Part shown: positions 40,500-44,518 of the stretch, one piece after another
Layout: each line of letters begins with the position of its first letter
Position numbering within the stretch: the first letter of the stretch is position 1
Assembly (NCBI RefSeq): GCF_013697775.1
Contig: NZ_JACCWG010000435.1
Coordinates: forward strand, 1-47,082
DNA length: 47,082 bases
Reading direction: 5' to 3'
Origin: Ramlibacter sp.
GTDB lineage: Bacteria; Pseudomonadota; Gammaproteobacteria; Burkholderiales; Burkholderiaceae_C
The notes under the pieces: model-generated
Databases searched by the model: none
Seen by the model: the letters and a program-made list of their open reading frames with translations, nothing else
What the model was told of the DNA's origin: nothing
Program-made: the position numbers and the translations under genes

Positions 40500-40919
40500 A
40501 TGAACCCAATTGCCGCAACCACCCCGGTCCCGATGCTGTCCCCGGAAGCACTCGCCGCCCTCGCCGGGCGCTACATCGAGATGTGGAACATCGCCGATGC
40601 CGCCGAGCGCCGCCGGGCCGTCGAATCCGTCTGGGTGCCCGAGGGCTGCCACTCGGTGCGCACGCTGCAGGCCCGCGGGTATGAGGAACTGGTGCAGCGC
40701 GTGGCGTCTTCGCACGAGAAGAACGTGCGCGACAAGGGCTTCCGCTTTCGCCTGAGCGGCCAGCCGCAGCAGCTGCAGGGCGCCGTGCTGCTGCACTGGG
40801 ACATGATGTGCCCGCCCTCGCCCGCGCTGGAAGCCTACGGCCTGGTGTTCGCGCACCTGGCGCCCGATGGGCGCATCGCCGCCGACTACCAGTTCGTGCT
40901 GCCGACACCGCAGGCCTGA
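40500..40919 (+). CDS. SnoaL-like / NTF2-fold small protein
   Basis: The 139-residue cytosolic protein has the NTF2 fold pattern: LAGRYIEMWNIADAAERRRA, WVPEGCHSV, a middle helix (YEELVQRVASSHEKN) and a C-terminal strand pair (LLHWDMMCPP, AADYQFVLP). SnoaL-like proteins are hydrolases, isomerases or ligand binders. It is divergent from the AraC gene and 94 bp upstream of an MFS gene, making a likely regulated unit. The 1150-residue track ORF ending here is a shadow except for this part. Confidence 0.75.
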   Translation: MNPIAATTPVPMLSPEALAALAGRYIEMWNIADAAERRRAVESVWVPEGCHSVRTLQARGYEELVQRVASSHEKNVRDKGFRFRLSGQPQQLQGAVLLHWDMMCPPSPALEAYGLVFAHLAPDGRIAADYQFVLPTPQA

Positions 40920-41013
40920 AGCAGGGCCCTTACCTCCCACGTCATTGTCCGGCCGCAGGTGGCGCGGCCACACTGCGGGGGCACCGCTCGCACTCTCGCT
41001 TTTTGGATCCGCC

Positions 41014-42459
41014 ATGAGCAACCCAATCGCATCCGCTTCCCTCGCTGGCGCACCGGCGCACGCCACGCAGCAGCAGCCCGGCCGCCTGGCGCTGCTGGTC
41101 ATGCTGTCCGGCACTTTCATGGTGGTGCTGGATTTCTTCATCGTGAACGTCGCCCTGCCCGCGCTGCAGGCCGACCTGCGCGCGAGCACGGGCACCGTGC
41201 AGATGGTGGTGGCCGGCTACGGCCTGGCCAATGCCGCCGGCCTCATCACCGGCGGGCGCCTGGGCGACATCTTCGGGCGGCGCCGCATGTTCATGCTGGG
41301 GCTGCTGCTGTTCACGCTGGCGTCGCTGGCCTGCGGCCTGGCGCCCAATGGCGACGTCCTGGTGGCGGCGCGCGTGCTGCAGGGCATGGCCGGCGCGGTG
41401 CTGCAGCCGCAAGTGCTGGCGATGATCGCGCTGGTCTACACCGGCGAGTCGCGCGCCAAAGCCTTCGGTGCCTACGGGCTCGCGCTGGGCCTGGGCGCGG
41501 CGCTGGGCCAGCTCATCGGCGGCGTGCTGATCCACCTGGACATCGCGCACCTCGGCTGGCGCAGCTGCTTTCTCATCAACATTCCCATCGGCGTCGCCGG
41601 CCTGCTGCTGGCGCCGCGCTTCATTCCACCGCTGGCCAACACCGGCGCGAGCCGGCTCGACTTGGTGGGCATGCTGCTCGCCGCGGCCGGTTCGGTGGCC
41701 GTGGTGCTGCCGCTGGTGGAAGGCCGGCAGCAAGGCTGGCCCGTGTGGAGCATCGCGATGCTGGTGGCCGCGCTGCCCCTGCTGGCGCTGTTCGCCTGGT
41801 ACCAGCGGTGGCTGGCCGCGCGCGGCGGCGCGCCGCTGGTGGCGCCCGCGCTGCTCGCGCACCGGCGTTTCGTGCGGGGGCTGCTGGCCACGCTGGCGTT
41901 CTACGTGGGCAACGCGTCGCTGTATCTCGTGCTGGCGCTCTATCTGCAGCAAGGCCTGCACATCGCGCCGATGCATTCGGGCCTGGTGTTCACGGCCATG
42001 GCCGTGGGCTTTTTCCTGGCGTCGATGGGCTCGGCGCGGCTGGCCAAACGCTTCGGCGGCGCGCCCATCGCGCGCGGCGCGCTGCTGCTGGCCGCCGGCC
42101 ACGTGCTGCAGCTTGGCAACGTGCTGTGGGGTGGCCAGCACATGCTGGCATTGATGGTGCCGATCCTGTTCGTGCAGGGCCTGGGCCTGGGCGTGGTGAT
42201 GGCGCCGCTGGTCTCGGCCGTTCTCGCCGGCCTGCCGCCGCAGCACGCGGGCGTGGCATCGGGCGTGCTGGCCATGGTGCAGCAGACCGGCAACGCGCTG
42301 GGTGTGGCGCTGATCGGCCTGCTGTTCTACGGGCAGCTGCACGGGGCGGTAACACCGGCTGCGTATGCCGATGCGTTCGCGGCGTCGCTTGTGTACCTGA
42401 CGGTGTCGGCGCTGGGGGTGGCACTGCTGTATCGGCGGCTGGTGCGCGTGGGGGCGTGA
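41014..42459 (+). CDS. MFS efflux transporter, DHA2 (EmrB/QacA) type
   Basis: The 481-residue protein has about 14 hydrophobic helices. It shows FMVVLDFFIVNVALPALQAD (motif D1), GGRLGDIFGRRRMFMLG (motif A) and ARVLQGMAGAVLQPQVLAMI (motif B), all typical of the DHA2 family. These export drugs or metabolites by proton antiport. The start at 41014 (MSNPIASASLAG) has a normal N-terminus; the track start in the neighbouring gene is rejected. It is probably under the divergent AraC regulator. Confidence 0.88.
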   Translation: MSNPIASASLAGAPAHATQQQPGRLALLVMLSGTFMVVLDFFIVNVALPALQADLRASTGTVQMVVAGYGLANAAGLITGGRLGDIFGRRRMFMLGLLLFTLASLACGLAPNGDVLVAARVLQGMAGAVLQPQVLAMIALVYTGESRAKAFGAYGLALGLGAALGQLIGGVLIHLDIAHLGWRSCFLINIPIGVAGLLLAPRFIPPLANTGASRLDLVGMLLAAAGSVAVVLPLVEGRQQGWPVWSIAMLVAALPLLALFAWYQRWLAARGGAPLVAPALLAHRRFVRGLLATLAFYVGNASLYLVLALYLQQGLHIAPMHSGLVFTAMAVGFFLASMGSARLAKRFGGAPIARGALLLAAGHVLQLGNVLWGGQHMLALMVPILFVQGLGLGVVMAPLVSAVLAGLPPQHAGVASGVLAMVQQTGNALGVALIGLLFYGQLHGAVTPAAYADAFAASLVYLTVSALGVALLYRRLVRVGA

Positions 42460-42482
42460 TTGCGTTGCTTGGGTGGCAGCGA

Positions 42483-42629
42483 CCGGCGGTCGGGGTGGGC
42501 CAGGCTCCGGGATCACGCTCGCGGGCGTCTGCCTTGGTACGCACAGATCACGTCGTCAACACCGCTGTGCCGTGCTGCCTCTGTGGCGACCGCGAATGGA
42601 CCCTGCGCCTGGCCCACCCCGACCGCCGG
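42483..42629 (+). repeat. Structured intergenic repeat, copy A
   Basis: This 147-bp element is bounded by a perfect 23-bp inverted repeat (CCGGCGGTCGGGGTGGGCCA + GGC). Its core (minus strand) GGCGCAGGGTCCATTCGCGG ... GCGGTGTTGACGAC ... GCCCGCGAGCGTGATCCCGG matches copy B, which lies inverted 108 bp away. It starts 24 bp after the MFS gene stop. No coding sign was found. Confidence 0.8.
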
Positions 42630-42673
42630 CCGCACGTGTCGCTTTCACTTTCGAACGCCCCCTCACCCCGGCC

Positions 42674-42693
42674 CTCTCCCCCTGGGGGGAGAG
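42674..42693. repeat. Short perfect hairpin between repeat copies
   Basis: CTCTCCCCC pairs perfectly with GGGGGAGAG around a 2-nt loop, preceded by CCCTCACCCCGGC. It resembles the common proteobacterial CCCTCACCCC-type palindromic spacer and may help termination between the two convergent genes. The 42630-42737 spacer holds nothing else recognisable. Confidence 0.6.
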
Positions 42694-42737
42694 AGAGGAA
42701 GTCCGGTCCCGGGCGGAACGCTCCGGTGCAACGTGGA

Positions 42738-42886
42738 GGGCAGTGGTTGGGGTACCCGGGCGCAGGGTCCATTCGCGGCCGCTACAGAGGCTGCACGGCA
42801 CCGCGGTGTTGACGACGGGCCGGCAGCATGCCGGGGCAGTCGCCCGCGAGCGTGATCCCGGAGCCCGGGTACCCCGGCCACTGCCC
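42738..42886 (-). repeat. Structured intergenic repeat, copy B (inverted)
   Basis: This 149-bp element is bounded by a 24-bp inverted repeat with two mismatches (GGGCAGTGGTTGGGGTACCC + GGGC). Inner sequences match copy A in the opposite orientation, with a few substitutions and a different 22-25-bp centre. The arms differ from those of copy A yet still pair. It ends 22 bp from the gamma-glutamyltransferase stop. Confidence 0.8.
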
Positions 42887-42907
42887 GATGCCACCCAAGC
42901 CAAAGCG

Positions 42908-44518
42908 TCAAAACCCCGCCGCCAGCCCGTCCCTTCGCGAATCGCTGGCCGCCACATACCCTTCCACCTTCGGATCCCCCAGCCGCCAGATGAACTGCCC
43001 CGCGCCGAAGTCCTGGTAGCTGTCGTTGATGACTTCCATGTGGTGGCCGCGGTTGGCCAGCTCCTGCACGGTAGCCGGGTCCATCTGCGCTTCCACGTTG
43101 ATCTCCAGGCCCTGGTTGAAGCGCCAGCGCGGCGCGTCGCACGCGGCCTGCGGGCTCTGGCCGTAATCCAGCATGCGCACCAGCGTCTGCATGTGGCCCT
43201 GCGGCTGCATGTTGGCGCCCATCACGCCGTAGCTCATGACCGGCTGGCCATTCTTGGTGAGGAAGGCCGGGATGATGGTGTGGAACGGCCGCTTGCCGGG
43301 CGCCACCTGGTTCGGCCCGGGCGACACGCTGAAGCCGTGGCCGCGGTTCTGCAGGCTGACGCCGTACTGCGGCTCCACGCAGCCCGAGCCGAAGCCCATG
43401 TAGTTGCTCTGGATGAAGCTCACCATCATGCCGTTCTCGTCCGCCGCGGTCAGGTAGATGGTGCCGCCCTTGGCCACGTTGCCGGCGCCGAAGTCCTGCG
43501 CGCGCTTCATGTCGATCAGCTTCGCGCGGCTGGCCAGGTAGGCGTCGTCCAGCATCTGTTCGGGCGTGACCTCCATCGCCGAGGGTTCGGCCACGTACTT
43601 GTAGATGTCGGCGAAGGCCAGCTTCATGGCCTCGATCTGCAGGTGCTGCGAATCGGCGCCGTCCACCGGCATGCCGGCCACGTCGAACTTGTCCAGGATG
43701 CCGATGGCGATGAGCGCGGCGATGCCCTGTCCGTTGGGCGGGATCTCGTGCAGCGTGTGGCCGCGGTAGTTCTTGGCGATGGGTGCCACCCACTCCGGCT
43801 TGTAGGCCGCGAGGTCTGCCGCCGTGATGGCGCCGCCGTGCTCGCCAGCAAAACGCGCGATGGCCTGCGCGATCTCGCCGCGGTAGTAGGCCTCGCCCTT
43901 CGTCTGCGCGACCAGCCGCAGCGCGCGCGCCGCCGCCTTGAACTGGAACAGCTCGCCCGCGCGCGGCGCGCGGCCCCAGGGCAAAAAGCTCTGCGCGAAG
44001 CCGGGCATGGAGCCCAGCTCCGGCGTGGCCGCGGCCCACTTCTGCTGCACCACCGGCGGCAGCATGTAGCCGCGCTCGGCGATGTCGATGGCCGGCTCCA
44101 TCAGGTCGGCGAAAGGCAGCTTGCCGAAGCGCTCCGACAGCGCCGCCCAGCCCGCCACCGCGCCCGGCACGGTGACGGAGTCCAGGCCCCGCTTGGGCGG
44201 CTTGCGCACGTCGGCGCCGTACTTGCCGCGGAAGTAGTCGGGCGTCCAGGCCGCCGGTGCCTGGCCGGACGCGTTCAGGCCGTGCAGTTCCTTGCCGTCC
44301 CACAGGATCGCGAAGGCGTCGCTGCCCAGGCCGTTGCTGACCGGCTCGCACAGGGTCATGACGGCCGCGGCGGCGATGGCCGCATCGACCGCGTTGCCGC
44401 CCTTCCACAGCATGCGCAGGCCGGCCTGTGCGCCCAGCGGGTGCGAGGTGGACACCACATTGCGCGCGAACACCGGCAGGCGCGTGGTCGGATAGGGGTT
44501 CTGGTAGTTGAAAGTCAT
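42908..44518 (-). CDS. Gamma-glutamyltransferase family protein
   Basis: The 536-residue Ntn-hydrolase has the GGT layout: SHPLGAQAGLRMLWKGGNAVD near the N-terminus, NGLGSDAFAILWDG, the catalytic Thr in GGTIYLTAADENGMMVSFIQ, and the ending AASDSRRDGLAAGF. Autocleavage before Thr would split it into two subunits. Unlike secreted GGT it has no signal peptide, so it is cytosolic and may act on gamma-glutamyl or cephalosporin-like amides. It is convergent with the MFS gene and followed upstream by a decayed Bug gene. Confidence 0.88.
   Translation of the reverse strand: MTFNYQNPYPTTRLPVFARNVVSTSHPLGAQAGLRMLWKGGNAVDAAIAAAAVMTLCEPVSNGLGSDAFAILWDGKELHGLNASGQAPAAWTPDYFRGKYGADVRKPPKRGLDSVTVPGAVAGWAALSERFGKLPFADLMEPAIDIAERGYMLPPVVQQKWAAATPELGSMPGFAQSFLPWGRAPRAGELFQFKAAARALRLVAQTKGEAYYRGEIAQAIARFAGEHGGAITAADLAAYKPEWVAPIAKNYRGHTLHEIPPNGQGIAALIAIGILDKFDVAGMPVDGADSQHLQIEAMKLAFADIYKYVAEPSAMEVTPEQMLDDAYLASRAKLIDMKRAQDFGAGNVAKGGTIYLTAADENGMMVSFIQSNYMGFGSGCVEPQYGVSLQNRGHGFSVSPGPNQVAPGKRPFHTIIPAFLTKNGQPVMSYGVMGANMQPQGHMQTLVRMLDYGQSPQAACDAPRWRFNQGLEINVEAQMDPATVQELANRGHHMEVINDSYQDFGAGQFIWRLGDPKVEGYVAASDSRRDGLAAGF

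What the first reader, a model, noticed from the sequence alone, without database searches (positions are those of the whole stretch)
42483..42886. Two inverted ~148-bp repeats whose terminal stems covary while the core is conserved
Copies A and B share cores (GGCGCAGGGTCCATTCGCGG..., GCCCGCGAGCGTGATCCCGG) but have different terminal arms: CCGGCGGTCGGGGTGGGCCAGGC in A, GGGCAGTGGTTGGGGTACCCGGGC in B. In each copy the two arms still pair with each other (23/23 and 22/24). Changing sequence with preserved pairing indicates selection or a copying mechanism for a hairpin. They sit head to head around a third hairpin, exactly between two convergent genes. No TIR/TSD of a known IS or MITE is seen.
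Basis: seen in the sequence. Interest (0 to 1): 0.7.

Follow-up and report, generated by a model that had tools for sequence, protein, structure and literature searches.

The report
Mobile cassette with covarying hairpin ends
Two matching DNA hairpins between two bacterial genes turn out to be the ends of a small mobile element found in many related genera, which keeps its folded shape while its sequence changes and in some species carries swappable genes, although the enzyme that moves it is unknown.

Summary
Two ~150-nt hairpins (42481-42631, 42738-42886) sit head to head between the stops of a convergent MFS gene and a gamma-glutamyltranspeptidase gene. The same pair, whole or broken, lies at about 14 places in this genome. 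Diverged relatives occur in 13 of 59 genomes of the genus and 24 of 141 genera of the family; none was found outside the family in ~365 genomes of the class. The covariation is real: in 92 units over ~22 genera, 27 of 33 pairs show compensatory change. Wobbles are G·U rather than A·C (A1: 97 vs 4), so one defined strand folds. All 72 neighbouring unit pairs point away from each other. One composite is absent from sister species at the same gene junction. Some pairs enclose a gene (ParDE, HARE-HTH, cupin, unknowns). At two loci relatives keep the same hairpin end(s) but hold different cargo. I read it as a transposase-less mobile cassette with strand-specific folded hairpin ends, MITE-like or mobile-insertion-cassette-like, moved in trans by an unidentified enzyme. 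RAYT and integron integrase were tested and do not track it. The mechanism is inferred; the anatomy, mobility and cargo variation are shown.

The parts
42467..42478 (+). left terminal inverted repeat GCTTGGGTGGCA, 7 nt after the MFS stop codon
   Evidence: inverted match I4; shared outer edge of other copies
42481..42631 (-). unit A (type-1 arms), 147-position structured hairpin; the folding strand is the minus strand
   Evidence: R1 match 127.2 bits on - versus 52.1 on +; fold; alignment A1
42483..42505 (.). outer arm of unit A, pairs with 42607-42629 (23/23)
42607..42629 (.). inner arm of unit A
42632..42737 (.). spacer of the composite (106 bp); the position where other members carry cargo genes
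42660..42699 (.). third hairpin, copy of a separately dispersed CTCACCCCGGCCCTCTCC-type repeat; not an obligatory part of the element
   Evidence: other genome copies; absent from the L014 spacer
42738..42886 (+). unit B (type-2 arms), 147-position structured hairpin; the folding strand is the plus strand
   Evidence: R1 match 122.8 bits on + versus 40.2 on -; fold
42738..42761 (.). inner arm of unit B, pairs with 42863-42886 (22/24 plus two G.T)
42863..42886 (.). outer arm of unit B
42889..42900 (-). right terminal inverted repeat (TGCCACCCAAGC on +), 7 nt before the complement of the gamma-glutamyltranspeptidase stop
   Evidence: I4

Best explanation
It is a small, transposase-less mobile element of one bacterial family. 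Two inverted ends, each with a short outer terminal repeat and a ~150-nt hairpin that must fold on one defined strand, enclose a spacer that is either short (about 50-150 bp, as here) or carries one or two genes. Shown: multicopy dispersal, obligate divergent pairing of the ends, strand-specific covarying structure, presence or absence between sister species at one gene junction, and different cargo between the same ends at orthologous loci. Inferred: an enzyme supplied in trans recognises the folded strand (most likely single-stranded DNA exposed during replication or transfer) and moves or swaps the segment. Intergenic sites between convergent genes are preferred because insertion there costs the host least.
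For: About 14 places in the own genome, with complete composites at C121, C55, C427, C18 and C221. 13/59 genus genomes and 38/300 family genomes, 24/141 genera; many copies in G149, G158 and G059 (34, 56 and 34 unit matches) with a genome-typical spacer length (48-49 bp in G149 and G158). 72/72 neighbouring units are divergent. Composite in G149 (L114) absent from G357, G250 and G359, where the same convergent genes are 8-23 bp apart. Structure: A1 97.6% of cells paired, 18 pairs with double changes, 0/500 shuffles; A2, 95.5% paired, 27/33 pairs with double changes, covariation 0.570 versus 0.149 shuffled and at most 0.064 when slid. G.U versus A.C: 97:4 in the A1 outer stem, where strand was set by a motif outside the stem, 333:13 in A2. 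Cargo between the ends: HARE-HTH protein (L098), ParD/ParE (L097), Cupin_2 (L245), DUF6678 (L095), ABC_sub_bind (L036), several unknowns; in eight cargo-bearing pairs measured the segment is lower in GC than its flanks. Same locus, different cargo: L096, L095 and L227 share left flank and left unit, homology stops at the inner edge ACCCTGCGGCTTGG; L098 versus L233 share both units (right unit 91% identical) but hold 971 bp with an ORF versus 210 bp.
Against: No transposase or recombinase linked to the units was found, and no target-site duplication was established. The G149 insertion also includes locus-specific sequence, so its exact edges are uncertain. Cargo-bearing pairs are a minority (about ten found) and could in part arise by ordinary homologous recombination or by decay of neighbouring copies. 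Wobble bias is equally expected if the folded strand is an RNA. Units were not found on plasmids or phages with this query, so movement between cells is not shown.
Confidence: 0.5

Rival explanations
1. The hairpin acts as RNA: it is a structured 3'-end, small RNA or processing element, and its spread is a by-product of a MITE-like element carrying it.
For: Strand-specific G.U wobbles, conserved asymmetric internal loops and a conserved GTGTTGACG apical motif are typical of RNA. Location next to gene ends.
Against: Each composite holds the folding strand of one unit in each direction, so a read-through transcript of either neighbour meets a wrong-strand unit first. No Rfam family matches the units. 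Members also lie between tandem genes and around cargo. No expression data were available.
Confidence: 0.22
2. Bidirectional terminator or insulator between convergent genes, kept by selection on the neighbours.
For: Among called contexts of paired units, 32 convergent, 24 tandem, 2 divergent, counting some places twice. Two composites carry a perfect hairpin with A/T runs or a strong hairpin in the spacer (L082, L090).
Against: No U-tract follows the units themselves; 24 of 58 called contexts are tandem; relatives do without any element at the same convergent junction; it does not explain cargo or swaps.
Confidence: 0.1
3. Relative of integron attC sites: single-strand hairpins recombined by an integron integrase, with cargo as gene cassettes.
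For: Strand-specific hairpin with covarying stem plus small cargo of toxin-antitoxin or unknown genes is the way attC cassettes look; integron integrase genes exist in many of these genomes.
Against: Units face each other in opposite directions, not in direct arrays. No RYYYAAC/GTTRRRY pair was seen in the units by eye (not scanned by program). Integrase presence does not track units: above cut-off in 12 of 28 unit-bearing and 13 of 20 unit-free genomes, and below cut-off in this genome. In G149 the integrase lies over 170 kb from the nearest listed unit.
Confidence: 0.07
4. REP/BIME-type element mobilised by a RAYT (Y1_Tnp) transposase.
For: Inverted pairs of hairpins in intergenic regions; this genome has one Y1_Tnp gene.
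Against: G149 and G357, rich in copies, have no PF01797 match; no unit lies within the fetched loci of the 11 Y1_Tnp genes checked; units are about four times longer than typical REPs (general knowledge).
Confidence: 0.04
5. No selection: quasi-palindrome correction by template switching keeps the arms complementary.
For: Such correction is known to restore complementarity in imperfect palindromes (general knowledge) and would create apparent covariation.
Against: It predicts no strand preference among wobbles, but G.U exceeds A.C 97:4; internal-loop positions and the 7-bp inner helix stay conserved over genera.
Confidence: 0.04

Closest known systems
Mobile insertion cassettes (MIC) and MITEs
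   Same: Transposase-less, bounded by inverted ends, multicopy, intergenic; a MIC carries a passenger gene where the transposase would be (papers found, e.g. PMC3913671).
   Different: The ends here are ~150-nt hairpins that covary on one strand; no parent transposon with matching ends was found; cargo differs at the same site between relatives.
Integron gene cassettes / attC sites
   Same: Folded single strand with conserved unpaired features and variable stem; small diverse cargo including toxin-antitoxin genes.
   Different: Ends inverted, not direct; no attC consensus pair noticed; no association with integron integrase.
REP/BIME elements with RAYT
   Same: Pairs of inverted hairpins between genes, with a spacer hairpin.
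   Different: Far longer units, no RAYT link, cargo-bearing forms.
ERIC, NEMIS/Correia and similar MITE-like palindromes
   Same: 100-160 bp intergenic palindromes in many copies (background in PMC3110155).
   Different: Those are single palindromes; here two divergent units with distinct arms form the element.
BRE, Betaproteobacterial repeat element (PMC3110155)
   Same: Dispersed intergenic repeat of betaproteobacteria, including Comamonadaceae, with mobile features; one copy is transcribed.
   Different: 75-91 bp, often in tandem arrays; sequence not held here, so identity with these units could not be tested.
Burkholderiales-1 motif (PMC2864571)
   Same: A candidate structured motif of Burkholderiales marked ambiguous as an RNA and without an Rfam accession.
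   Different: Its sequence is only in the supplement, not readable here; relation unknown.

Membership tests
MITE / mobile insertion cassette | terminal inverted repeats | tested here: met
   GCTTGGGTGGCA at both ends in the window; analogous outer repeats in G149 and other genera
MITE / mobile insertion cassette | dispersed copies and empty sites | tested here: met
   empty site
MITE / mobile insertion cassette | target-site duplication | tested here: inconclusive
   G149 edges listed show no clear duplication by eye; insertion carries extra locus-specific sequence
MITE / mobile insertion cassette | ends matching a transposase-bearing parent element | tested here: inconclusive
   only units already found were inspected; no transposase lay between any pair examined, but no exhaustive search for a parent was possible
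REP/BIME with RAYT | Y1_Tnp gene in genomes with active copies and near units | tested here: not met
   none in G149 or G357; no unit near 11 Y1_Tnp loci
Integron cassette / attC | association with integron integrase | tested here: not met
   12/28 unit-bearing versus 13/20 unit-free genomes
Integron cassette / attC | direct repeats of the recombination site around each cassette | tested here: not met
   72/72 neighbouring units are divergent
Known Rfam structured RNA | match to a covariance model | tested here: not met
   no unit matched among 4227 families at E up to 1 or 0.5
BRE (PMC3110155) | sequence identity to the Bordetella repeat | not testable with these tools
   sequence only in figures and supplement; unit length and arrangement differ

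The most novel reading that the evidence does not exclude
A chromosomal gene-cassette exchange system of one bacterial family that works without integron integrase or a linked transposase: two inverted hairpin sites, recognised as folded single strands, hold a cargo slot whose contents are exchanged at fixed loci.
Probability: 0.2. Interest if true: 0.85.

Novelty: new variant of a known kind. Interest (0 to 1): 0.6.

Why it matters
If right, the family links two things usually seen apart: MITE-like spread and integron-like cargo turnover, with ends selected for folding of one strand. The strand bias of the wobbles gives a direct handle on whether a mobile DNA end is recognised as a single strand. 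The cargo slots (toxin-antitoxin, HARE-HTH, unknown genes) are a place to look for new small functional genes, and the G187/G277 locus pair makes cargo exchange testable.

Tried and rejected
RAYT mobilisation: rejected as general helper. Integron integrase association: a first set looked promising (5 of 12 above cut-off), but unit-free genomes carry it at least as often. Insertion into pre-existing palindromes: G149 flanks show no more self-complementarity than mismatched flanks (own 7.14, other 7.19, p 0.52); an excess across genera probably reflects genome-specific terminal repeats. Plasmid, phage and viral-contig searches: one short chance-like match in a Streptomyces plasmid, otherwise none. 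A larger element in G158 (L280, units 3 kb apart) holds a hybrid histidine kinase, not a transposase. L094 versus L234 is the same locus with different content, but L234 keeps only one unit, so I do not count it as a clean swap. First HMM iterations mixed strands because the unit is a palindrome; orientation was then fixed by the CCATTCGCGG motif.

Full report
Observation. The window holds two inverted ~150-nt units head to head at 42481-42631 and 42738-42886, between the stop codons of a convergent MFS gene (40867-42459 +) and a gamma-glutamyltranspeptidase gene (42908-44518 -). The arms pair 23/23 and 22/24 as stated. Folding is far stronger than in shuffles. A short terminal inverted repeat, GCTTGGGTGGCA, lies just outside both units.

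Copies in this genome. BLAST of the element finds about 14 places. Five hold two units (C121, C55, C427, C18, C221); others hold one unit or a remnant, four of them at contig ends, where assemblies break at repeats. Two arm types recur, and the complete composites join one of each.

Relatives. Diverged units occur in 13 of 59 genomes of the genus. A covariance model (R1) from 46 units finds 38 of 300 family genomes and 24 of 141 genera, a lower bound because only ten candidates per genome were scored. In 369 genomes of the class the only matches are in the own family. Matches on plasmids, phages and viral contigs were absent or chance-like.

Structure. In alignment A1, 97.6% of cells in 33 pairs are standard pairs, 18 pairs show changes on both sides, and no shuffle of 500 reaches this. 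In A2, aligned to the model and so leaning towards its structure, 27 of 33 pairs show double changes and the covariation score is 0.570 against 0.149 in shuffles and at most 0.064 with slid partners. Sequences are related, so counts are not independent events. The wobble test is more telling. In the outer stem of A1, with strand set by a motif outside the stem, G.U cells outnumber A.C cells 97 to 4. In 92 A2 units it is 333 to 13, of which 90 G.U come from one invariant pair. The strand used in A2 agrees with the motif in 89 of 92 units. 43 of 46 A1 units fold better on that strand. A dsDNA palindrome, or neutral correction of palindromes, would not show this; a folded RNA or single DNA strand would.

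Geometry and context. All 72 neighbouring unit pairs in non-redundant loci are divergent. In a codon-score gene calling, pairs with both neighbours called lie between convergent genes in 32 cases, tandem in 24, divergent in 2; some places are counted twice there, and no background rate was measured.

Mobility. In G149, a complete genome, near-identical composites with a 48-bp spacer lie at many sites. At one of them (L114) the sister species G357 and the relatives G250 and G359 keep the same convergent genes 8-23 bp apart. The extra sequence in G149 includes locus-specific bases besides the element, so the exact insertion edges and any target duplication stay open.

Cargo. Some pairs enclose a gene: HARE-HTH protein in L098, ParD/ParE in L097, a cupin in L245, DUF6678 in L095, an ABC substrate-binding protein in L036, and unknowns in L093, L094, L096, L132. 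In eight such pairs the enclosed DNA has lower GC than its flanks. In one genus, three species share the flank and left unit at one locus but differ completely beyond the inner edge of that unit (131 aa, 101 plus 85 aa, and 279 aa ORFs); in G263 no second unit was recognised. In another genus, L098 and L233 share the flanks and both units, with 971 bp including an ORF in one and 210 bp without an ORF in the other. L098 also has 733 bp more outside its right unit. These loci show that what lies between the ends changes while the ends stay.

Mechanism. I favour a mobile cassette whose ends are recognised as folded strands by an enzyme supplied in trans. The helper is unknown. RAYT genes are absent from G149 and G357 and never near units. 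Integron integrases are common in the family, but not more so in genomes with units: 12 of 28 against 13 of 20. The RNA reading remains open, since G.U wobbles fit RNA equally well. No Rfam family matches.

Known work. Literature searches found no description of this element in the held library. The nearest are BRE, a 75-91 bp betaproteobacterial repeat (PMC3110155), and an ambiguous Burkholderiales-1 motif (PMC2864571); neither sequence could be compared. Hence novelty is stated as a new variant of a known kind, not as categorically new.

Noticed in passing
window 42660-42699 and L029 and other places: The CTCACCCCGGCCCTCTCC...GGGGAGAGGG hairpin is a separate dispersed repeat in this genome; a similar one sits in the spacer of a composite from another genus (L100).
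   Followed up: partly
L082 1407-1500 and L090 1379-1500: Composite spacers hold a perfect hairpin; in L082 it is flanked by A and T runs and looks like a bidirectional intrinsic terminator.
   Followed up: no
L098 2831-3280: Next to the cargo-bearing pair lies a further 733-bp segment with a 149-aa ORF, absent from L233, as if a second cassette had been added.
   Followed up: partly
L098 198-319: Match above the gathering score to Rfam RF02835 (Bcj11), within the region of the neighbouring MFS-like ORF.
   Followed up: no
L247-L270: Integron integrases (TIGR02249) above cut-off are very common in this family, in 22 of 38 and 5 of 12 genomes tested.
   Followed up: partly
L145-L153 (G059): Outer flanks of composites in G059 contain further partial unit ends in tandem, suggesting repeated insertion or duplication next to existing copies.
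   Followed up: no
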